Source: an uncultured delta proteobacterium (GTDB taxonomy: Bacteria > Myxococcota > Myxococcia > Myxococcales > 40CM-4-68-19). From it: a stretch of DNA of 64,000 nt. The stretch covers positions 62,001 to 126,000 of the forward strand of contig CAIWCD010000024.1 in assembly GCA_903911145.1 (NCBI GenBank). Direction: 5' to 3'. Positions 11,508-51,476 of the stretch are shown here, piece after piece. Numbering within the stretch: position 1 is the first letter of the stretch; the number at the start of each line of letters is the position of its first letter. Under the pieces are notes generated by a model. The model searched no databases and had not been told where the DNA came from. It worked only from the letters and a program-made list of their open reading frames with translations. A program made the translations under genes and the position numbers.

Positions 11508-13904
11508 ATGCTGACCCGCATTCGCGTCTTGGGACTCCTCTCCGCTGTCGCGATGGCTGCTTGTTCGAGCGGTACGTCAGCCCCCGGGGGCCGGGTCGAG
11601 GTGCAACTCGACGTGACCAGGCTCGCCACCAACGGGAGCGTGGCGACGGCAACCATCGTGGTGACCAACGCGAGCGGCAATCCTGCCTCGGGCTCGGTCC
11701 ACGTCTCCTCTCTCGTCGGAAAGGTCGATGGAAAGGCCTCCGAGGATGTCGTCCTCGACTCGACGGGCGCGGCCACCGCGACCTATGCGTGTGACGTCGC
11801 CACCACCGCGGCTTGCGCGAGCGCGACTGCGACGCTGCTCATCGCGAGCTGGAGCGGCGTGACCGGGAGCGCGCGTCTGACACTTCAGCCGGCGGTCATC
11901 ATTCCGGATGGCGGCGGCGGTGGCTCCGGCGGTGGCTCCGGCGGTGGCTCTGGTGGTGGCTCCGGCGGCGGCTCCGGAGACGCGGGCACGCCCGACGCGG
12001 GACCGATCAGTGACGCCGGCCCGACGCCGATCACTGAGACCGTCCAGCTCGTCACCGTCAGTCCGACCAGCATCGGCACCAGCTCGGCCGCGGCAAACGG
12101 GCTTCCCACCTCGTCGGTGATCTTCTTCCAGGTGCTCGGAAACGGGACTCCACTCGCGGGCGCCAACGTCTCCTTCGCGCCCTCCATCGGCGAGAACCTG
12201 CTGACCTTCTCCGCCACCAGCGCGGTCACCAATTCGAACGGCCTCGTCTCGCTGACGGTCAGCTCGAAGGGCACCACCGGCATCGCGCATGTGATCGCAA
12301 GCCTCGCGCTCTCGGCGAACGTCGCGACCGCGCAGGTCGTGATCTTCGGGCCGCCTGCGAGCATCATCGAGACGGCAGTGACGCCGAGCGTCCTCGGCAT
12401 CATGGGGTCCGGCATCCAGGAGCAGGGCCTGATGACCTTCCTCGTCTCCGACGCGTTCGGCACGCCCGTCCCCGGCGCGGAGGTCGACTTCACGCAGGCG
12501 CAGCCCCAGCTGGTTTCGCTGAACACCACGAGCGGCGCGACCGACGCGAACGGCAAAGTGGCAATCTCCTACACCGCGGGCGCGGAAGTCGGCGTCACCA
12601 CGCTGATCGCCACTGCGCACGGTCTTCCCGGCGTGAGCGGCAGCCACCAGGTCGCGGTCCGCGGCGCCAAGCCCTCGGCGTCGGGCTTCTACTTCAAGTG
12701 CGATCGTGGCGAACTGCGCGTCTACGACACGATCACGGAACTCGCGACGATGACCTGCCATGTCCGACTCTCCGATCGCTTCGGCAACCGCGTCGGCATT
12801 CCCACGCCGGTCAACTTCGCCACCGAGGCCGGTTCGATCACGGCGTCTGCCACCACGGCCGCCTTCGACGCAGCCCATCCCGATCTCGAGGGCACGGTCG
12901 ACGTGACCTTCTCCAGCGACCTCGGCAACGGCAACTCGCCGGCCGATGTCATCCCGCTGGCTCCCGATGAGAGCGTCAACCAATACCCGTCGCAGCGCAC
13001 AGAGGCGGAGCCGAGCCTGACCTTCGGGCAGCTCACCTACAATCCGCGCGATCAACTCGTGACGATCATCGCGTGGACGCAGGGCGAGGAGGCGTTCGTC
13101 GACGCCAACCACGACGGCGCGTACAACACGGGTGAGCTCTTCATCGACGAAGGGGACCCTTTCCTCGATGAGAATGACGACAACGTCTACGACCAGGTCG
13201 TGCCGGGCGGGCAATACGAGCCGCGCTTCTGCGGGAGCACCGCGTCGGGCACCTGCCCGGCCTACAATCCGCCGAACGGGAAGTGGGACTCGCAGACGAC
13301 GATCTGGACGCCGACGTGGGTTGTCTTCGGCGGCTCTGCCCATCCGAGCAATACGCCCGCGGGCGCCGAGACGCCCGACGTCTATTTCGGACCGGCGACC
13401 TGCGCCGACTACGCTGACTCGAGCAATCCGTCGACCATCTTCGCGCCGGTCTACTATTACGACCGCTGGTTCAACCCGCCGGTGACTGGCTCGACCTACT
13501 CGATCACTGCCACCTCGCCGGCGACCGCGCGCGGATTTGCCGTGCTGTTCGGCAACTCAGTCGAACTCGACCACTACGGCTCGTTTGGACAGCTCGGTGG
13601 CGGCTTCTCGTACGGGCCGGTCGCCGTGGCTGGCGGTCCCTGCTCGACTGAAAATGGAACGGCGTGCATCTACAACGTCCACTTCCAGTCGTTCGACTCG
13701 GGCCTGCGCAACGAGGTCGTCTTCTCGGACAGCAACACGACGACGAAGGCATTGAACGCCTGCGGACTCCACCCCAGTGCCCCGCAGATGCCCGTCCCGT
13801 TTGTTGTCGAGGTCGGTGTGACCGAGCCGGCCGGCAGCGGAACCGACACCAACGCCTCCGGCTTCTTTGGATCGTACGCGCCGACGTACATCGCGCCTCC
13901 GTAG
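11508..13904 (+). CDS. Large Ig-like (Big_1) repeat lipoprotein
   Basis: Surface-exposed or periplasmic lipoprotein of 798 residues with lipobox MAAC. A first beta-sandwich is followed by a Gly/Ser linker (residues ~128-150, GGGS units) and an Asp/Ala-Gly stretch. At least two bacterial Ig-like Big_1-type domains come next, with recurring ANGLVSLTVSS and ANGKVAISY motifs. The C-terminal ~370 residues carry Ca-loop-like segments DANHDGAYNTGE and DENDDNVYD, and several Cys. The function is unknown; adhesion or protein display is plausible. GGAGG seven bases before the ATG is one of the clearest ribosome-binding sites here. An intrinsic-terminator-like hairpin follows the stop. Confidence 0.82.
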   Translation: MLTRIRVLGLLSAVAMAACSSGTSAPGGRVEVQLDVTRLATNGSVATATIVVTNASGNPASGSVHVSSLVGKVDGKASEDVVLDSTGAATATYACDVATTAACASATATLLIASWSGVTGSARLTLQPAVIIPDGGGGGSGGGSGGGSGGGSGGGSGDAGTPDAGPISDAGPTPITETVQLVTVSPTSIGTSSAAANGLPTSSVIFFQVLGNGTPLAGANVSFAPSIGENLLTFSATSAVTNSNGLVSLTVSSKGTTGIAHVIASLALSANVATAQVVIFGPPASIIETAVTPSVLGIMGSGIQEQGLMTFLVSDAFGTPVPGAEVDFTQAQPQLVSLNTTSGATDANGKVAISYTAGAEVGVTTLIATAHGLPGVSGSHQVAVRGAKPSASGFYFKCDRGELRVYDTITELATMTCHVRLSDRFGNRVGIPTPVNFATEAGSITASATTAAFDAAHPDLEGTVDVTFSSDLGNGNSPADVIPLAPDESVNQYPSQRTEAEPSLTFGQLTYNPRDQLVTIIAWTQGEEAFVDANHDGAYNTGELFIDEGDPFLDENDDNVYDQVVPGGQYEPRFCGSTASGTCPAYNPPNGKWDSQTTIWTPTWVVFGGSAHPSNTPAGAETPDVYFGPATCADYADSSNPSTIFAPVYYYDRWFNPPVTGSTYSITATSPATARGFAVLFGNSVELDHYGSFGQLGGGFSYGPVAVAGGPCSTENGTACIYNVHFQSFDSGLRNEVVFSDSNTTTKALNACGLHPSAPQMPVPFVVEVGVTEPAGSGTDTNASGFFGSYAPTYIAPP

Positions 13905-13925
13905 GCGCTCATCACGTGTGCTGGT

Positions 13926-28190: not shown

Positions 28191-29117
28191 ATGCAGCCCG
28201 CGTCCCCGCCCTCTTCGCCGCGTCCGAGCGACCCGCCCGAGCTGACCGCCTTTGCGCGCCACCTCGAGCAGGTCGAGCGCGCGTCGTCGCACACGGTCCG
28301 TGCCTACCTCTCCGATCTGCGCCAGCTGCACAGCTTTCTTCTCGAGAGAAACACGCCGTTCGCCGCCGTGACGCGCGACGATCTGCGGGCCTTCCTCAGC
28401 GCACGCTACGGGCTCGACAAGCCCGCGACGCTTGCGCGCAAGCAGTCGGCGATGCGCGCGTTCTACGAGCATCTCCGCCGCGCCGACGCGATCACGACGA
28501 GCCCCGCGCACAGGCTGGTGGCGCCCAGGCGACGGTTCTCGCTGCCCAACGTCGTCTCCGTCGATGACCTCTTCGCGCTCCTCTTGACGCCGAGCGAGAG
28601 CACTGCCGCGGGTCTGCGCGATCGCGCCTGCCTCGAACTGCTCTACGGCGCGGGCCTGCGCGTTTCGGAGTTGGTCGGTCTCGACACAGGCGATCTGATC
28701 GACGGGATGAGCGCGCTGCGCGTGCGCGGCAAGGGTCGCAAGGAGCGGATCGTTCCGCTGATCGCCAAGCCGCGCGAAGCGCTCTCTGCGTGGTTGCTTC
28801 GTCGCGACGAGCTGCGCGGCCAGAAGCAGGAGCGCGCGATCTTTCTCAACCGGCGCGGCGGGAGGCTCACTGCGCGCAGCGTCGCGCGCCATCTCGATCG
28901 CTACGCGCTCATCTGCGCCACGCGCCGGCATCTGCATCCGCACGCGCTGCGCCACTCCTTCGCGACGCACCTGCTCGACATGGGGGCCGATCTGCGCGGG
29001 ATCCAGGAGTTGCTCGGACACGCATCGCTCTCGACGACGCAGCGCTACACGCACGTCTCGTCGGAGCGGCTCGTGCAGATCTACGACCAGGCCCATCCGC
29101 GCGCGCTGAAGAAGTAG
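28191..29117 (+). CDS. xerC: XerC/XerD-type tyrosine recombinase
   Basis: Site-specific recombinase of 308 residues, probably resolving chromosome dimers at dif. The N-terminal SAM-like core-binding domain has SSHTVRAYLSDLRQLHSFL. The catalytic residues are all present: Arg in GAGLRVSELVGL, Lys in RVRGKGRKERIVPL, His and Arg in HPHALRHSFATHLLD, His in ELLGHASLSTTQRYTHV, and the Tyr nucleophile in that last segment. Length and lack of an adjacent integron or phage gene favour a housekeeping Xer. It lies downstream of an AT-rich stretch with tandem dyads. Xer genes are often near hslVU; here those are 14 kb away. Confidence 0.9.
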   Translation: MQPASPPSSPRPSDPPELTAFARHLEQVERASSHTVRAYLSDLRQLHSFLLERNTPFAAVTRDDLRAFLSARYGLDKPATLARKQSAMRAFYEHLRRADAITTSPAHRLVAPRRRFSLPNVVSVDDLFALLLTPSESTAAGLRDRACLELLYGAGLRVSELVGLDTGDLIDGMSALRVRGKGRKERIVPLIAKPREALSAWLLRRDELRGQKQERAIFLNRRGGRLTARSVARHLDRYALICATRRHLHPHALRHSFATHLLDMGADLRGIQELLGHASLSTTQRYTHVSSERLVQIYDQAHPRALKK

Positions 29118-44261: not shown

Positions 44262-45311
44262 ATGTCCTTCGATGACGTGATCATCCTCTTCGGCGGCACC
44301 TCGAGCGAGCGGCGCGTCTCGGTCGCCTCCGCGCAGCACATCTCTTCGCAACTCGGGGGCGCGCGCTGCTGGTTCGAGTCGGCGAACGGGCCGGTCTTTG
44401 CGGTCAGCGAAGCGGAGCTCGCGGCATTCGAACGGCCGTTCGAAAACGACTTCAAGCCGCCAGGTGCACCAGCGTTCGAAAGCATCTCGGCCGCGCTGGA
44501 TGCGGGTGCGCGCGATCGGCCGGTCTTCCTGCTCGGCTATCACGGCACATTCGGCGAGGACGGCCAGGTGCAGAAGCTGCTCGAAGCGCGCGCGGCCTCG
44601 TTCACGGGCTCGGGCTCGCTCGCGTCGGCGAAGGCGTTCGACAAGTCGTGGGCGAAGCGGCTCGCGGCGGAGCAGGGCGTGCGCGTCGCCGAGGCGATCG
44701 AGCTGCCTCGCAATGATGCGCGCGCAATCGCCGATGCTCTCGCAGGACTGCTCGCGCGCCACGGCCGCGCCGTGGCCAAGCCAGTCGCGGGTGGGAGCTC
44801 CGTGGGCCTGCATCATCTGCGCAATCACGAAGACATCGCGCGCGCCGCAGAGCAGATCGCGCAGGCCCGCGAGGCCTATCTCGCCGAGGCGTTCATCGAG
44901 GGGCCCGAGGTCACCATTGGCGTCGTCGACGGCCCGCACGGCACGCGCGCGCTGCCGGCCTCCGAGGTGCGCATGGATCCGGGCCGCGCCTTCGACTTCG
45001 AGGGGAAATATCTCGGGAAGGGCACGTTGGAGATCACGCCTGCAGAGCTGCCTGCCGAAACGATCGCCGCGGCCCAGGCACTTGCGCTCACCGTGCACAA
45101 GACGCTCGGCTGCTACGGCTACTCGCGCACCGACGTCATCTGTTCTTCGCGTGGTCCGGTGCTGCTCGAGATCAACACGCTACCCGGAATGACCCGCCGG
45201 TCATTTATTCCGCAGCAGCTCGCCGCAGAGGGGACGAGCGTCCGTAGTTTCCTCGAGGGGCAGCTTCACCTCGCGCGCGAACGGGACGCTCGCGACGCGC
45301 GTTCGCGCTAG
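44262..45311 (+). CDS. ddl: D-alanine-D-alanine ligase
   Basis: ATP-grasp enzyme making D-Ala-D-Ala for cell-wall synthesis, 349 residues. FGGTSSERRVSVASA is the N-terminal D-Ala site, with Glu and Ser. GYHGTFGEDGQVQKLLE is the canonical ligase motif. Further motifs are KPVAGGSSVG, EAFIEGPEVTIGVVDG and EINTLPGMTRRSFIPQQLA. TACCTT lies seven bases before the ATG, suggesting leaderless expression. The stop codon interlocks with that of apaG (palindromic CTAG at 45308-45311). mur genes are not adjacent. Confidence 0.92.
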   Translation: MSFDDVIILFGGTSSERRVSVASAQHISSQLGGARCWFESANGPVFAVSEAELAAFERPFENDFKPPGAPAFESISAALDAGARDRPVFLLGYHGTFGEDGQVQKLLEARAASFTGSGSLASAKAFDKSWAKRLAAEQGVRVAEAIELPRNDARAIADALAGLLARHGRAVAKPVAGGSSVGLHHLRNHEDIARAAEQIAQAREAYLAEAFIEGPEVTIGVVDGPHGTRALPASEVRMDPGRAFDFEGKYLGKGTLEITPAELPAETIAAAQALALTVHKTLGCYGYSRTDVICSSRGPVLLEINTLPGMTRRSFIPQQLAAEGTSVRSFLEGQLHLARERDARDARSR

Positions 45312-46324: not shown

Positions 46325-47551
46325 ATGCGAATCCCGACTCTCTCTCGTCTGTCGTTGCTGTCCGCCTCCGCTGCGGCGCTTCTGCTCTCCTGCTCGCACG
46401 ACGCCGCGAAGCCCGATGCCGCGTCCACCGCCGCAGCCGTGAAGGCACCGGAGAGCGCGGCCGTACAGCAAGGCGCAGCCGAGAAGGCCGCGGCAGAGAA
46501 GCTCGCGGCGGAGAGGTTCGCAGCGCAGAAGGCCGAGGCAGACAAGGCCGCAGAGGAGCAGCTGCACCTCGCGAAATTGCGCCTCCACGTTGCGGTCGCA
46601 TCGTTGCCCGAGGTGCCCGCGCTCCCTGCGCTGCCGCACGGAATAGCGAAGGTCGAGGCGCCGGCGGACAATCCGCTCACGGCCGAGAAGGTCGCGCTCG
46701 GGCAGCAGCTCTTCTTCGACAAGCGTCTCTCGAAGGATGGGTCGATGAGCTGCGAGAGCTGCCACCACATCGCGCAGGCCTACACGTCGGGCAACGCGCT
46801 CGACACGAAGGTGGGCGGCAAGGTCAACGTGCGCAACGCGCCGACGATGACGAACCTCGGCTATCACGCGAACGGCTACTACTGGGATGGTCGCAAGCCC
46901 ACGCTGGAGGCGGTCACGCAGGCGGCCTGGGCGGGGCAACTCGGTGCAGATCCGGCGGCGGTTCCCGCGGCGCTCAACGCGATCCTCGAGTACCGCGCGC
47001 TCTTCGAGCGGGCCTTTGCGAGCGAGGCGACGGCGCAGAACATCCCGCAGGCTCTCGCCTCGTTCCTGCGCGCGCTCACCAGCGGTGACAGCGCGTGGGA
47101 GAAGTTCGAGGCGGGCGACAAGAAGGCCGTGAGCAAGGATGCGATCGCGGGCGCGAAGCTGTTCACGTCGAAGGGCTGCGTGCAGTGCCACATCGCGCCG
47201 CTCTACACGGACACGATGTTCCACAACGTCGGCATTGGGTGGGACGCGAGCAAGAAGGCGTTCGCCGATCACGGCCGCATGGACGCGACGAAGGACGCCG
47301 CCGACGACGGGAAGTTCAAGACGCCCACGCTCCGCGATGCCGCGAAGACGGGCCCGTACTTCCACGACGGCTCAGCGAAGACGCTGGCCGATGCGATCGA
47401 GATCATGTCGAACGGCGGCGTGGCGAATCCGACGCTCGATGCCAAGCTGAAGCCCGCGAAGCTGAACAAGAAGGAGCGCGCGCAGCTCGAGGCGTTCATC
47501 TCTTCGCTGAGCGGGAATCTCTCGCTGGGCGCGGCTCCGACGCTTCCCTAA
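46325..47551 (+). CDS. Di-heme cytochrome c peroxidase (CcpA/MauG family) lipoprotein
   Basis: Periplasmic lipoprotein of 408 residues that should reduce H2O2 using electrons from cytochrome c. The lipobox is LLSC. Residues ~25-95 are an Ala/Glu/Lys-rich helical linker, unusual for the family. The first heme motif CESCHH and the second CVQCHI mark the two heme domains. GQQLFFDKRLSKDGSMSC and RNAPTMTNLGYHANGYYWDG are signatures of CcpA/MauG enzymes, as is KTPTLRDAAKTGPYFHDGSA near the end. The substrate range could include other oxidations. Its stop interlocks with the beta-lactamase stop. Confidence 0.92.
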   Translation: MRIPTLSRLSLLSASAAALLLSCSHDAAKPDAASTAAAVKAPESAAVQQGAAEKAAAEKLAAERFAAQKAEADKAAEEQLHLAKLRLHVAVASLPEVPALPALPHGIAKVEAPADNPLTAEKVALGQQLFFDKRLSKDGSMSCESCHHIAQAYTSGNALDTKVGGKVNVRNAPTMTNLGYHANGYYWDGRKPTLEAVTQAAWAGQLGADPAAVPAALNAILEYRALFERAFASEATAQNIPQALASFLRALTSGDSAWEKFEAGDKKAVSKDAIAGAKLFTSKGCVQCHIAPLYTDTMFHNVGIGWDASKKAFADHGRMDATKDAADDGKFKTPTLRDAAKTGPYFHDGSAKTLADAIEIMSNGGVANPTLDAKLKPAKLNKKERAQLEAFISSLSGNLSLGAAPTLP

Positions 47552-48432
47552 GGCGCTGCGAATTCAGCCGCGATGATCGCGCCGAGCTCTCGCTGCGCTC
47601 CTTCGAGCACGGCGAGATCGGAGGCCGAGTCGCTCAGAAATGATGCGACGACGATCGGTTTGCGTCCCGGGGGCCAGAGGACCGCGAGGTCGTTGACGGC
47701 TCCTCGCTCGCCACACGTGCCAGTCTTGTCAGCGGCGCGCCAATCCTTCGGGATCCCGGCGCGCAATCGTTGAGCGCCGGTCTCGCTGCGCTCCATCGCG
47801 CGCAGGACGCGGTCGCGCGCTTCGGGAGGAAGATCGTCTCCGACGAGCAGCCTGCGCATCGTCGCGGCCATCGCGGCGGGCGTGCTGGTGTCCCGCGGAT
47901 CGCCAGCCAGATTCGTGTTGAGCGCGGGCTCGATCCGATCGAGCCGCGTCGTCGCGTCTCCCTTGCCACGCAGCCAGGCAGTCACTCCGGTCGGTCCTCC
48001 GACGAGTGGCAGGAGCAGATTGGCCGCGCCGTTGTCGCTCGCCTCGATCACCGCGTCGCAGAGCGCGCCCACGCTCATCGCGCCCTCGTTCAGATGGTCG
48101 CGCGTCACTGGCGAGTGGCCGACGAGTTCGGCCTTCGTGTACGGCACGCGCTGTTCAACAGAGATCTGCGCGCGACCGCGCACGGCCTGCAGCGCACGCT
48201 CAAGCACATCGGCTGCGAGCAGCCACTTGAAGCTCGAGCAGAAGGCGAACCGCTCATCCGCGTGGCGCAAGAGCACAGCGCCCGTCCCGGTGTCGATCGC
48301 GTAGAGCCCGATGCGTCCGCCGATGCGTGCCTCGAGCGCAGCGAGCTTCTGCGTCGAGGCTGGGTTGTGCGGCGTCGCGCCCGTGGCCGCCAGCGCCGCG
48401 CAGCAGAGCGCACCGATGAACCGCAGGCGCAT
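47548..48432 (-). CDS. Class A beta-lactamase with Cys69-Cys238 signature
   Basis: Secreted serine beta-lactamase of 294 residues; hydrolyses the beta-lactam ring in the periplasm. A signal peptide lies ahead of about residue 20. All class A elements are present: nucleophile Ser66 in CSSFK (Ambler S70xxK), SDN at 132-134, Glu168 in EPALN (Ambler E166), and KTG at 236-238. Cys65 (Ambler 69) and Cys240 (Ambler 238, TCG) are placed as in KPC, SME, NMC-A and GES carbapenemases, and Arg222 matches Ambler R220 of KPC. Similarity to KPC continues through TGAQRLRAGIPKDW and VNDLAVLWP. Hydrolysis range is an inference. ATG 48432 was preferred over TTG 48441. Confidence 0.93.
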   Translation of the reverse strand: MRLRFIGALCCAALAATGATPHNPASTQKLAALEARIGGRIGLYAIDTGTGAVLLRHADERFAFCSSFKWLLAADVLERALQAVRGRAQISVEQRVPYTKAELVGHSPVTRDHLNEGAMSVGALCDAVIEASDNGAANLLLPLVGGPTGVTAWLRGKGDATTRLDRIEPALNTNLAGDPRDTSTPAAMAATMRRLLVGDDLPPEARDRVLRAMERSETGAQRLRAGIPKDWRAADKTGTCGERGAVNDLAVLWPPGRKPIVVASFLSDSASDLAVLEGAQRELGAIIAAEFAAP

Positions 48433-48448
48433 GACGATCAAACCTGCG

Positions 48449-49381
48449 CTAGGCGCGGACGGAGAGAGTCGCTGGCTGCCAGCGCAGCGCGAGCGCGTCG
48501 GCGAGGATCAGCCGCGTGTCACCCGAGAGGCGCATCTGGCGAAACGGCGGTGCACTGCCCGCGCGCGTTCCATTGGTGCTCGCGGTGTCGATGGCCCAGA
48601 CCTCATCGTCGACCGAGAGCAGCACGAGGTGCACGCGCGAGAGATTTCCCTCTTCGACGCCACCGTGGCTGCAGCGATCGTCCCGCCCGACCAGGATGCC
48701 GCGCTCGAGTTGATCGCTCGTCACCGCGTGCGTCGAGGTGAGATCGCCCGGCTGCGGCGAAGCGTTCTCGATGGTGATGGTCGCGAGGCGGACTGAATTC
48801 GGGTTGGGCGCCGCGCGCGATTTGAGCGGCTGCGCAGGCGGGAGGATCTCCTGATCGCGAGGCGCAAAGCTGCGCCAGGTCTCATCGGGATCGTTTCCCC
48901 AGGCGCGCACGCCAGGACCGGTCGGGAAGAAGAAGAGGATGTAGCTGGCGACCTGGATGAAGAGCGGACCTCGCGAGGCGATCGCTTCGCAGGGGCGGCC
49001 GTCCTCCGAGAGCAGGCCCGTGCGCGAGCGAAGATCGATCGCGCGCAGATGGAGCGCGCCCCCGGGGCCGCGCGTGGCGCGCAGCAGCAGATGGCGCAGC
49101 GAAACGTCGTTGTCGCGAGAGAGCACGACGTCGCATCGCTCGTGGCGTCCGATGATCAGGTGCGCGATGCCGCTCTCGGGAAGGCGCAGATGCGCGTGCG
49201 CGTCGAAGAGACCGTTGCGATCGATTGCGGCGATCATCACCCCTTCGTGCCCTTGCGCAGCCCAGGCTGCCCTGAGCGCTGCGTACTGCTTGCGGAAGAC
49301 GGCGGCGAACGGCTCCCCTGCCAGGTCGGCGCTCCAGGGTGAACGCGGTCGTGCGCCTTCGTCTGCGGGATTGTGCGGCAT
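48449..49381 (-). CDS. Protein with two FHA domains
   Basis: A cytosolic protein of 310 residues that should bind phosphothreonine peptides. A first FHA-like domain has IIGRHERCDVVLSRDNDVSL and HLLLRATRGPGG (its usual SxxH is replaced). The second has ILVGRDDRCSHGGVEEGNLSRVHL and AIDTASTNGTRAG, with the canonical Gly-Arg, Ser-Arg-x-His and Asn-Gly contacts. The N terminus has no recognised domain. No kinase or phosphatase gene is adjacent. The ATG at 49381 gives a compact start; a longer N terminus is possible. It is tandem with the beta-lactamase and divergent from the aromatic fusion gene. Confidence 0.85.
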   Translation of the reverse strand: MPHNPADEGARPRSPWSADLAGEPFAAVFRKQYAALRAAWAAQGHEGVMIAAIDRNGLFDAHAHLRLPESGIAHLIIGRHERCDVVLSRDNDVSLRHLLLRATRGPGGALHLRAIDLRSRTGLLSEDGRPCEAIASRGPLFIQVASYILFFFPTGPGVRAWGNDPDETWRSFAPRDQEILPPAQPLKSRAAPNPNSVRLATITIENASPQPGDLTSTHAVTSDQLERGILVGRDDRCSHGGVEEGNLSRVHLVLLSVDDEVWAIDTASTNGTRAGSAPPFRQMRLSGDTRLILADALALRWQPATLSVRA

Positions 49382-49517
49382 GCCGCAGACCGTAGCGCCG
49401 CTGCGTCGCTGGAGCAAAGGTGCTTGAAGAGGGAAAGCGCGTCTCGTTGCGCCGCGGAATGCTCATCGGACGGGCAGCGGATAGGCCGCGAGCACGCTTG
49501 AGGAGCACTTGCACCCC

Positions 49518-51476
49518 ATGTCAGACACGCAAGAGATGCCTCGCGACCTCGAGCCGCGCGTCGGGTACCAGGGCGAGCCGGGTGCGTTCGGGGAGCAAGC
49601 TGCTGCGGCGCACGGTGGACGGCCGATCGGGTTCGCAAGCTTCGAGACGCTGCTCGCCGCGCTGCAGGCGAACGAGATCGACGAGGCGGTGCTGCCGATC
49701 GACAACGCGGTGGTCGGGCCGATCACCGAGGCGCTCGAGCCTCTTGCTCGCGCGGTCGAAGGAGATCTCGCGCTCTCTGCCGTCGGACTGACCAGCGTGC
49801 CGGTGCGCCTCGCGCTGGCGGCGCGTCCTGGCACTCCGCTCTCCGACGTGAAGCGGGCCTTCTCGCATCCGGCGGCGTTGCGCCAGTGCACGAAGAAGCT
49901 CGCTGAGCTCGGGATCTCGCCGCAGCTCGCCTACGACACCTCGGGCGCGGCCCAGCTCGTCGCCAGAGATGCGACGACCGACGCGGCGATCTGCTCGCAC
50001 CGCGCGGCCGAACTCGCGGGCCTCGAGGTGCTCGTCGATGACCTCTCCGATCTCGAGCAGAACGGCACGCGCTTCATTCATCTGCGGCCCGCCGATCACG
50101 CGCGCGCGACGGTCTCGTTTGCGTATCTGCGCGGCAAGGTCGCCAGTGCGCAGGCTCGGCTCGATGTGCTCACCGACGCGACTGTGCTCCCGCTCGCGCC
50201 CAGCGCGGACTTCCCGCTGCGACTCTGGGTTCTCGGCGCCGATGCGGCTCGCTTGCAAGCGGTCGCGCCAGTGCGCGACGTCACGGTGATCTCGCTCGGT
50301 GCGCCGGCAGCGAACACCAGCCACGTCGCGCCGAAGACGGTTCCGGGGCCGGCGGTTGCGTCGCTTCCTCACGCGACAGCGCGGCGTGCGCCGACCCAGA
50401 TCGTGGTCGGGCCGTTCAAAATCGGCGCAGGTGCGCGCGCGATGATTGCCGGGCCGTGCTCCGTCGAATCTCCCGAGCAGGTATTGCGCATCGCGCGCCA
50501 CGTCGCCTCCTGCGGCGCCACCGCGTTGCGCGGCGGCATCTTCAAGCCGCGAACCAACCCCTATTCGTTCCAGGGCCACGGCCTCGCCGCGCTCGACTGG
50601 CTCGTCGAGGCGGGCCGCGATGTCGGACTGCCTGTGATCACCGAGGTGATGGCGGTCGATCAGGTCGAGAGCGTTGCGGCGCTCTCGGACATTCTCCAGA
50701 TCGGCGCGCGCAACATGCAGAACTTCGATCTGCTCCGCGCAGTGGGTCGCGCGGGTCGGCCGGTGCTGCTCAAGCGCGGCGCGGGCTCGACGACCGACGA
50801 GTGGCTCGGCTCGGCCGAGTACGTGATGGCGAGCGGCGAAGAGCGCGTCATTCTCTGCGAGCGCGGCATCCGCACGTTCGAGACCTCGACGCGCAACACG
50901 CTCGACATCGGCGGCATGCTCGCGGTTCGCCCCCTCACGCATCTGCCGCTGATGGTCGATCCCTCGCATGCAGCGGGACGCGCCGATCTCGTCGAGGGAC
51001 TCGCGCGCGCCGCATGGGCCGCAGGGGCTGACGGGCTCATCGTCGAGGTGCACGACGATCCCGCTCGCGCGCTCTCCGACGCAGAGCAGGCTCTCGTGCC
51101 CGCGCGCTTCGCCGAGCTCGCGCGTGCGCTTCATCTTCAACCGAACAAGCGTCTCTCGCTCTCCGAGTTGCGCGCCTGGGTCGACACCATCGATCACGAG
51201 CTCGCGTCACTGGTGCATCGCCGACTCTCGGTCGCGCGCGCGATCGGTGCGGCCAAGCGCAAGAGTGGTCGCGCAGTGCTTGATCCAAAGCGCGAGGCGG
51301 CAGTGCGGCGCACGTATCGCGAGGCGCTCGGTGAGCACACGGCGCTTGCGGAGATGCTCGTCGATCTCCTGATCGAGGCGGCGCGCGCGCAGCAGTCGAT
51401 CGAGGACGACGGCGAGCCGGAGCGGCCGATGGGCTCGAGCCCGCGCCCGGTTCCTGCGAGCAGGAACAAGTCGTAG
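49518..51476 (+). CDS. Trifunctional prephenate dehydratase / DAHP synthase / chorismate mutase
   Basis: About 652 residues with three enzymes of phenylalanine synthesis. Residues ~12-185 are prephenate dehydratase: VGYQGEPGAFGEQ, PIDNAVVGPITEALE and the catalytic TRF in NGTRFIHL. Residues ~190-265 are a small ACT-like or ferredoxin-like region without the GAL and ESRP phenylalanine-binding motifs. Residues ~305-545 are a class I-beta DAHP synthase: IAGPCSVESPE, KPRTNPYSFQGHG, IGARNMQNF, LLKRG, CERGIRTFE and DPSHAAG. Residues ~548-630 are an AroQ chorismate mutase: LRAWVDTIDHELASLVHRRL, GAAKRKSG and LDPKREAAVRR. CM-PDT and DAHPS-CM fusions are known; this order of three is unusual. TTG 49509 is an alternative start. 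Confidence 0.9.
   Translation: MSDTQEMPRDLEPRVGYQGEPGAFGEQAAAAHGGRPIGFASFETLLAALQANEIDEAVLPIDNAVVGPITEALEPLARAVEGDLALSAVGLTSVPVRLALAARPGTPLSDVKRAFSHPAALRQCTKKLAELGISPQLAYDTSGAAQLVARDATTDAAICSHRAAELAGLEVLVDDLSDLEQNGTRFIHLRPADHARATVSFAYLRGKVASAQARLDVLTDATVLPLAPSADFPLRLWVLGADAARLQAVAPVRDVTVISLGAPAANTSHVAPKTVPGPAVASLPHATARRAPTQIVVGPFKIGAGARAMIAGPCSVESPEQVLRIARHVASCGATALRGGIFKPRTNPYSFQGHGLAALDWLVEAGRDVGLPVITEVMAVDQVESVAALSDILQIGARNMQNFDLLRAVGRAGRPVLLKRGAGSTTDEWLGSAEYVMASGEERVILCERGIRTFETSTRNTLDIGGMLAVRPLTHLPLMVDPSHAAGRADLVEGLARAAWAAGADGLIVEVHDDPARALSDAEQALVPARFAELARALHLQPNKRLSLSELRAWVDTIDHELASLVHRRLSVARAIGAAKRKSGRAVLDPKREAAVRRTYREALGEHTALAEMLVDLLIEAARAQQSIEDDGEPERPMGSSPRPVPASRNKS

What the first reader, a model, noticed from the sequence alone, without database searches (positions are those of the whole stretch)
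47548..48432. Chromosomal class A beta-lactamase with the carbapenemase cysteine pair
The sequence has Cys immediately before the active Ser (CSSFK) and TCG after KTG, the 69/238 disulfide positions of KPC, SME, NMC-A and GES. Arg at the R220 position and a KPC-like stretch around ADKTGTCG add to this. It sits among housekeeping genes with no mobile-element marks, so it may be an old environmental relative of the clinical carbapenemases.
Basis: partly seen in the sequence, partly recalled or inferred. Interest (0 to 1): 0.7.

Follow-up and report, generated by a model that had tools for sequence, protein, structure and literature searches.

The report
Lone beta-lactamase with carbapenemase-type cysteine pair
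A bacterium, probably an environmental one, carries a single penicillin-destroying enzyme that has, apparently on its own and not by shared descent with the hospital carbapenemases, gained the pair of cysteines thought to let those enzymes break last-line antibiotics; whether it really breaks them must be measured.

Summary
Window 47548-48432 (-) encodes a 294-aa class A serine beta-lactamase with CSSFK, SDN, RIEPALN, R220 and KTGTCGERG, so it has both Cys69 and Cys238. It passes the NCBIfam class A cut-off and stays far below the carbapenemase-family cut-offs.

C69, R220 and H105 are background: 71 of 101 sampled homologues have C69, and 44 have all the other residues usually listed for carbapenemases. 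C238 is the rare part. Only 5 far relatives have it, and the nearest relatives (about 50% identity) do not.

The 'KPC/GES-like relative' reading mostly fails. KPC/IMI/FRI/VCC form a clade (100/99) inside a supported group without the query. Joining query and KPC is rejected (AU p=0.0035), joining all C238 enzymes more strongly (p=1e-5); query+GES is borderline (p=0.051). C238 needs four changes on the tree and on all 1000 bootstraps.

The gene is also not an old resident locus. All 11 sampled genus and family mates lack it, and in one of them its two neighbours lie side by side.

Best reading: a functional beta-lactamase with a convergently gained C69-C238 disulfide. Carbapenemase activity is plausible but unproven, about even odds.

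The parts
47548..48432 (-). Class A serine beta-lactamase gene, 294 aa (ATG at 48432; TTG at 48441 possible)
   Evidence: NF033103 273.9 bits over cut-off 200; PF13354
48370..48432 (-). Predicted export signal (MRLRFIGALCCAALAATGATP): basic start, hydrophobic stretch, Ala-rich end; no canonical lipobox
   Evidence: Read from the sequence; low pLDDT over residues 1-18 fits a cleaved leader; cleavage site inferred
48226..48240 (-). CSSFK: Cys65 (=C69, 48238-48240), catalytic Ser66 (=S70), Lys69 (=K73)
48031..48039 (-). SDN motif (S132-D133-N134 = 130-132)
48058..48060 (-). Cys125 (= position 123): third cysteine outside the leader, absent from KPC/IMI/FRI/VCC/GES; its TEM partner Cys77 is Ala here
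47917..47937 (-). Omega-loop RIEPALN: R164, E166 (general base of deacylation), N170
47767..47769 (-). Arg222 (= R220)
47710..47727 (-). KTGTCG: K234-T-G-T237-C238-G; Cys240 codon TGT at 47713-47715. The beta3-beta4 stretch is one residue longer than in the nearest relatives, as in KPC/IMI/FRI/VCC
48449..49417 (-). FHA-domain protein gene directly upstream on the same strand, 16 bases from bla; conserved in all 12 family genomes
46325..47551 (+). Di-haem cytochrome c peroxidase-like gene, convergent with bla, stops overlapping; directly adjacent to the FHA gene in relative G002

Best explanation
It is a functional periplasmic class A beta-lactamase. It gained the Cys69-Cys238 pair independently of the KPC/IMI/SME group, and probably of GES and of the Francisella-like enzymes. 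Ser66 (S70) attacks the lactam and forms an acyl-enzyme; Glu168 (E166) with Asn172 (N170) positions the water that releases it. C65 and C240 form a disulfide behind the oxyanion hole (backbone NH of Ser66 and Thr239), stiffening it as in SME-1, SFC-1 and KPC-2, which may allow carbapenem turnover. The host makes it from a single accessory gene, probably transcribed behind an FHA-domain gene, as protection against beta-lactams of neighbours. Shown: gene, motifs, phylogenetic separation from KPC, lineage-restricted presence. Inferred: export, disulfide formation (about 0.8), beta-lactam hydrolysis (about 0.95), useful carbapenem hydrolysis (about 0.5), co-transcription, ecological role.
For: All catalytic residues are present. 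Class A equivalog cut-off passed. Confident fold (pLDDT 88, pTM 0.87), most matches to class A structures at 1.5-2.4 A, KPC-2 included. It carries all 13 positions listed as important for class A carbapenemases in the PAD-1 paper (PMC5566211), with T237 as in KPC-2 instead of S237. KPC/IMI/FRI/VCC fall in a 12-row group with support 99/97 that excludes the query. Query+KPC rejected p=0.0035 and all C238 together p=1e-5. Four changes of C238 on 1000 of 1000 bootstraps and under a second model. C238 absent from the nearest relatives. Absent from 11 genus and family mates, with an empty site in G002. DsbA-family matches in the genome, so periplasmic disulfide formation is plausible. Disrupting the pair abolishes imipenem resistance by SME-1 and raises the calculated barrier in SFC-1 (PMC9379904, PMC9377157, PMC4463611).
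Against: No activity data. The disulfide alone is not sufficient: GES-1 has it and is a very poor carbapenemase (PMC4463611). It is not necessary: PAD-1 and BKC-1 have Asn at 238 (PMC5566211). A third cysteine (C125) could interfere. Deep branches have modest support, and query+GES is not excluded at 0.05.
Confidence: 0.8

Rival explanations
1. It has the disulfide but is not a carbapenemase. The pair serves stability, and the enzyme is a penicillinase or cephalosporinase, like GES-1. (This shares the descent part of the best explanation and differs only on substrate.)
For: GES-1 has C69 and C238 with imipenem kcat/Km about 100-fold below GES-5 (PMC4463611). Position 167 is Pro, as in GES-1, not Leu as in KPC/IMI/FRI/VCC. 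Carbapenemase-family NCBIfam cut-offs are missed by a wide margin.
Against: GES-1 is limited by Gly170, whereas the query has Asn170 as in KPC. H105, R220, T237 and N132 are all carbapenemase-type residues.
Confidence: 0.45
2. It is a true but distant member of the KPC/IMI/SME (or GES) lineage and inherited the pair.
For: Same loop length and CG insertion as KPC. A quick 110-row tree search did not reject query+KPC (p=0.58), but that search was poor: the constrained trees scored better than the free one. Query+GES p=0.051 in the careful tree.
Against: Careful 50-row tree: query+KPC p=0.0035; all C238 together p=1e-5; 0 of 1000 bootstraps with query+KPC or query+GES. KPC is nearer to C238-less Burkholderiales enzymes (62% identity to L081) than to the query (44%).
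Confidence: 0.08
3. The second cysteine is incidental. C65 and C240 stay reduced, or C125 competes, and the enzyme behaves like its C69-only relatives.
For: Three cysteines in the mature protein; most relatives have C69 alone.
Against: C125 is at position 123, away from 69/238 in the class A fold (established knowledge), and its usual partner at 77 is Ala. The KTGTCGxxG spacing is that of KPC, where the bond forms. DsbA-family genes are present.
Confidence: 0.12

Closest known systems
Environmental C69-bearing class A enzymes without C238 (Eleftheria terrae bla; L003 and L012 of the same order) and the reconstructed ancestral GNCA/PNCA enzymes in the PDB
   Same: About 48-50% identity, the best found; same catalytic motifs, C69, R220, often H105
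   Different: They lack Cys238; the KTG loop is one residue shorter
KPC/IMI/SME/FRI/VCC carbapenemases
   Same: C69 and C238, CG after T/S237, N170, R220, N132; H105 as in FRI and VCC
   Different: 35-40% identity over the full alignment A2; separate clade; P167 instead of L167; extra C123; NCBIfam KPC 211.6 against cut-off 625
GES family
   Same: C69-C238 pair, P167, T237
   Different: 35% identity; Cys238 there without the extra residue; G170 and T220 in GES-1; not joined in any bootstrap, though AU p=0.051
Small-genome gammaproteobacterial class A enzymes (rows L041-L046; Francisella FPH-1 recalled as probable kin)
   Same: C69-C238 pair, R220, N170; two rows also have the CG insertion
   Different: 25-30% identity; Asn at 179 and no R164; far branch of the tree.
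PAD-1 / BKC-1
   Same: Class A carbapenemases; PAD-1 environmental, shares nearly all the other listed residues (PMC5566211)
   Different: Asn at 238, so no disulfide; they show the pair is not required

Membership tests
Class A (Ambler) serine beta-lactamase | S70-x-x-K73, S130-D131-N132, E166, K234-T/S-G motifs in order | tested here: met
   CSSFK, SDN, RIEPALN, KTG
Class A (Ambler) serine beta-lactamase | Score over the curated family cut-off | tested here: met
   NF033103 273.9 against 200
Class A (Ambler) serine beta-lactamase | Class A fold | tested here: met
   AlphaFold2 model pLDDT 88.3; Foldseek TM to target 0.87-0.96 with class A structures
Class A (Ambler) serine beta-lactamase | Hydrolysis of beta-lactams | not testable with these tools
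   No enzyme assay
KPC/IMI/SME carbapenemase clade | Cysteines at 69 and 238 | tested here: met
   C65 and C240
KPC/IMI/SME carbapenemase clade | Descent within the clade | tested here: not met
   AU p=0.0035; 0 of 1000 bootstraps
KPC/IMI/SME carbapenemase clade | Curated score of KPC or class A carbapenemase models | tested here: not met
   KPC 211.6 vs 625; classA_carba 224.5 vs 390
KPC/IMI/SME carbapenemase clade | Disulfide actually formed | not testable with these tools
   Model coordinates not given; local spacing equals KPC
KPC/IMI/SME carbapenemase clade | Carbapenem hydrolysis | not testable with these tools
   Needs purified enzyme
GES family | Descent with GES | tested here: inconclusive
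   AU p=0.051; 0 of 1000 bootstraps; GES branch long

The most novel reading that the evidence does not exclude
A further, independent natural origin of a disulfide-type class A carbapenemase, outside the KPC, GES and small-genome gammaproteobacterial lines, reached by inserting one Cys codon into the beta3-beta4 loop of an enzyme that already had C69, in a bacterium without any sign of clinical drug selection.
Probability: 0.4. Interest if true: 0.5.

Novelty: new variant of a known kind. Interest (0 to 1): 0.35.

Why it matters
The C69-C238 bond is treated as the structural hallmark of class A carbapenemases, and its role is debated: GES-1 has it but is poor, PAD-1 and BKC-1 lack it but work. 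An unrelated enzyme that gained the pair on a different background gives a natural test of whether the bond brings carbapenem turnover. It also suggests that environmental class A enzymes carrying C69 need only one further change to have the pair. It is a question about origins of resistance, not a new mechanism or a clinical alarm: no close mobile copy was found in 72,556 plasmid records (best 48%).

Tried and rejected
(1) KPC/GES-like ancestry: rejected for KPC by tree and AU test, borderline for GES. (2) The 110-row quick tree was dropped: its constrained trees scored higher than the free one, so its tests are not usable; a 50-row careful tree replaced it. (3) R220, H105 and C69 as carbapenemase markers: rejected, since 44 of 101 homologues have all the other listed residues and none of these 44 has C238. 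(4) Ancient resident gene: rejected in favour of a lineage-restricted insertion. (5) Foreign DNA by composition: bla GC 69.2% and GC3 81% do not stand out from its neighbours, so no support for very recent import. (6) Local repeats: only weak GC-rich matches. (9) Literature for myxobacterial class A carbapenemases: one unrelated paper. (10) The AlphaFold input lacked the first Met, so its numbering is one lower than used here.

Full report
OBSERVATION. Window 47548-48432 on the minus strand is an open frame of 294 codons. It reads CSSFK, SDN, RIEPALN, R at 220 and KTGTCGERG. Outside the leader there are three cysteines: C65 (Ambler 69), C125 (123) and C240 (238); C10 and C11 lie in the leader. 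It is a class A beta-lactamase by NCBIfam (273.9 bits, cut-off 200), Pfam, PDB sequence search and predicted fold (pLDDT 88.3, pTM 0.87; Foldseek best hits are the reconstructed PNCA/GNCA class A enzymes, then PenA, with KPC-2 further down). It is single copy in its genome, on a contig of at least 126 kb.

HOW UNUSUAL IS EACH MARK. I collected homologues from about 1570 genomes (195 of the window's own phylum; samples of the classes of an alphaproteobacterium and a xanthomonad and of the order of an Alcaligenaceae bacterium) and added KPC-2, IMI-2, FRI-5, VCC-1, GES-1, CTX-M-15, SHV-12 and TEM-30 from plasmid records. Of 101 homologues other than those references, 71 have C69, and 44 have all twelve other residues that the PAD-1 paper (PMC5566211) lists as important for class A carbapenemases (105 taken as H/W/Y, 237 as S/T). 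Only 5 have C238, and none of those is among the 44. These five are far relatives (25-30% identity) from three genomes of about 2 Mb, possibly Francisella-like; they lack R164 and D179. The rare mark in the query is therefore C238 alone, together with a loop one residue longer: KTGT-C-GERG against KTGTSGNG or KTGTGARG in near relatives. Read against TEM (KSGAGERG) it looks like one inserted Cys codon; that is inference.

DESCENT. In a careful 50-row tree with columns 69 and 238-242 left out, KPC, IMI, FRI and VCC form a clade (100/99) nested in 11-, 12- and 16-row groups (95/85, 99/97, 96/93), none of which contains the query. The query falls near Eleftheria terrae and L058 with modest support. 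Forcing query+KPC clade costs 37.5 log units (AU p=0.0035); query inside the 12-row group p=0.028, and all C238 enzymes together p=1e-5; query+GES p=0.051. C238 needs four changes on the best tree, on all 1000 bootstrap trees and under a second model. [quoted passage not shown] the query and the small-genome set would be further ones. A first quick tree of 110 rows was inconclusive, because its constrained searches beat the free one; I did not use it.

GENOMIC SETTING. Order on the window: hslV, ddl, apaG-domain gene, greA/greB-type gene, cytochrome c peroxidase, bla, FHA, PDT-DAHP-CM fusion, EamA. The FHA gene is conserved in all 12 family genomes, next to the fusion gene, but none of the other 11 has bla. 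In G002 the FHA and peroxidase genes are directly convergent with only a few bases between stops. In the window the same gap holds just bla, with 16 bases between the FHA stop and the bla ATG and overlapping stops at the other end. In genomes of genus g4 the slot holds a Gfo/Idh-like oxidoreductase gene by my reading of the translation. So bla is a lineage-restricted single gene in a variable slot, probably read with the FHA gene. Composition is like its neighbours, and no flanking repeats or transposase were seen. Loss in all eleven relatives is the alternative and is less economical.

MECHANISM. Standard class A chemistry is expected from the motifs: acylation at S66, deacylation by E168/N172 water. 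Literature: the C69-C238 bond sits behind the oxyanion hole; SME-1 C69A loses imipenem resistance; the calculated barrier in SFC-1 C238G rises by 5.4 kcal/mol (PMC9379904; PMC9377157; PMC4463611). Yet GES-1 has the bond with poor activity, explained by Gly170, and PAD-1/BKC-1 do without it. The query has Asn170, H105, T237, R220, N132 and both bond positions, so I put useful carbapenem hydrolysis at about even odds. DsbA-family matches are present in the genome, no VKOR. Bond formation was not measured.

VERDICT. Observation confirmed; interpretation partly supported. A new subfamily-level class A enzyme with a convergent cysteine pair. Interesting as a natural test of the role of the disulfide, not as a new kind of system.

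Noticed in passing
window 49509-51476 (+): One 655-aa protein joins prephenate dehydratase, DAHP synthase and chorismate mutase domains (PDT-DAHP-CM), a three-domain fusion I do not recall as common; pieces of it are conserved at 66-79% in all 11 sampled family members.
   Followed up: partly
slot between the FHA gene and peroxidase/greB in family genomes (L132-L142): Variable-content slot: empty in G002, Gfo/Idh-like oxidoreductase in genus g4, about 3.7 kb of other sequence in the same-genus genome G001, bla in the window.
   Followed up: partly
L041, L042 versus L043, L045, L046: Two genomes (G386, G247) carry two class A genes each, one with KTGTCGEY (extra residue) and one with KTGTC and no extra residue, so C238 occurs with both loop lengths in one lineage.
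   Followed up: no
window 28689-28767 (+) and 13822-13916 (-): ARAGORN calls a tRNA-Ala(cgc) inside an open frame that looks like a tyrosine recombinase (28191-29117), and a tRNA with a 4-base anticodon overlapping another long frame; both are probably false calls in GC-rich coding DNA.
   Followed up: no
window 44262-45311 (+): A D-Ala-D-Ala ligase gene (cell-wall pathway) lies a few genes from bla on the opposite strand; likely coincidence, since relatives keep the neighbouring genes without bla.
   Followed up: no
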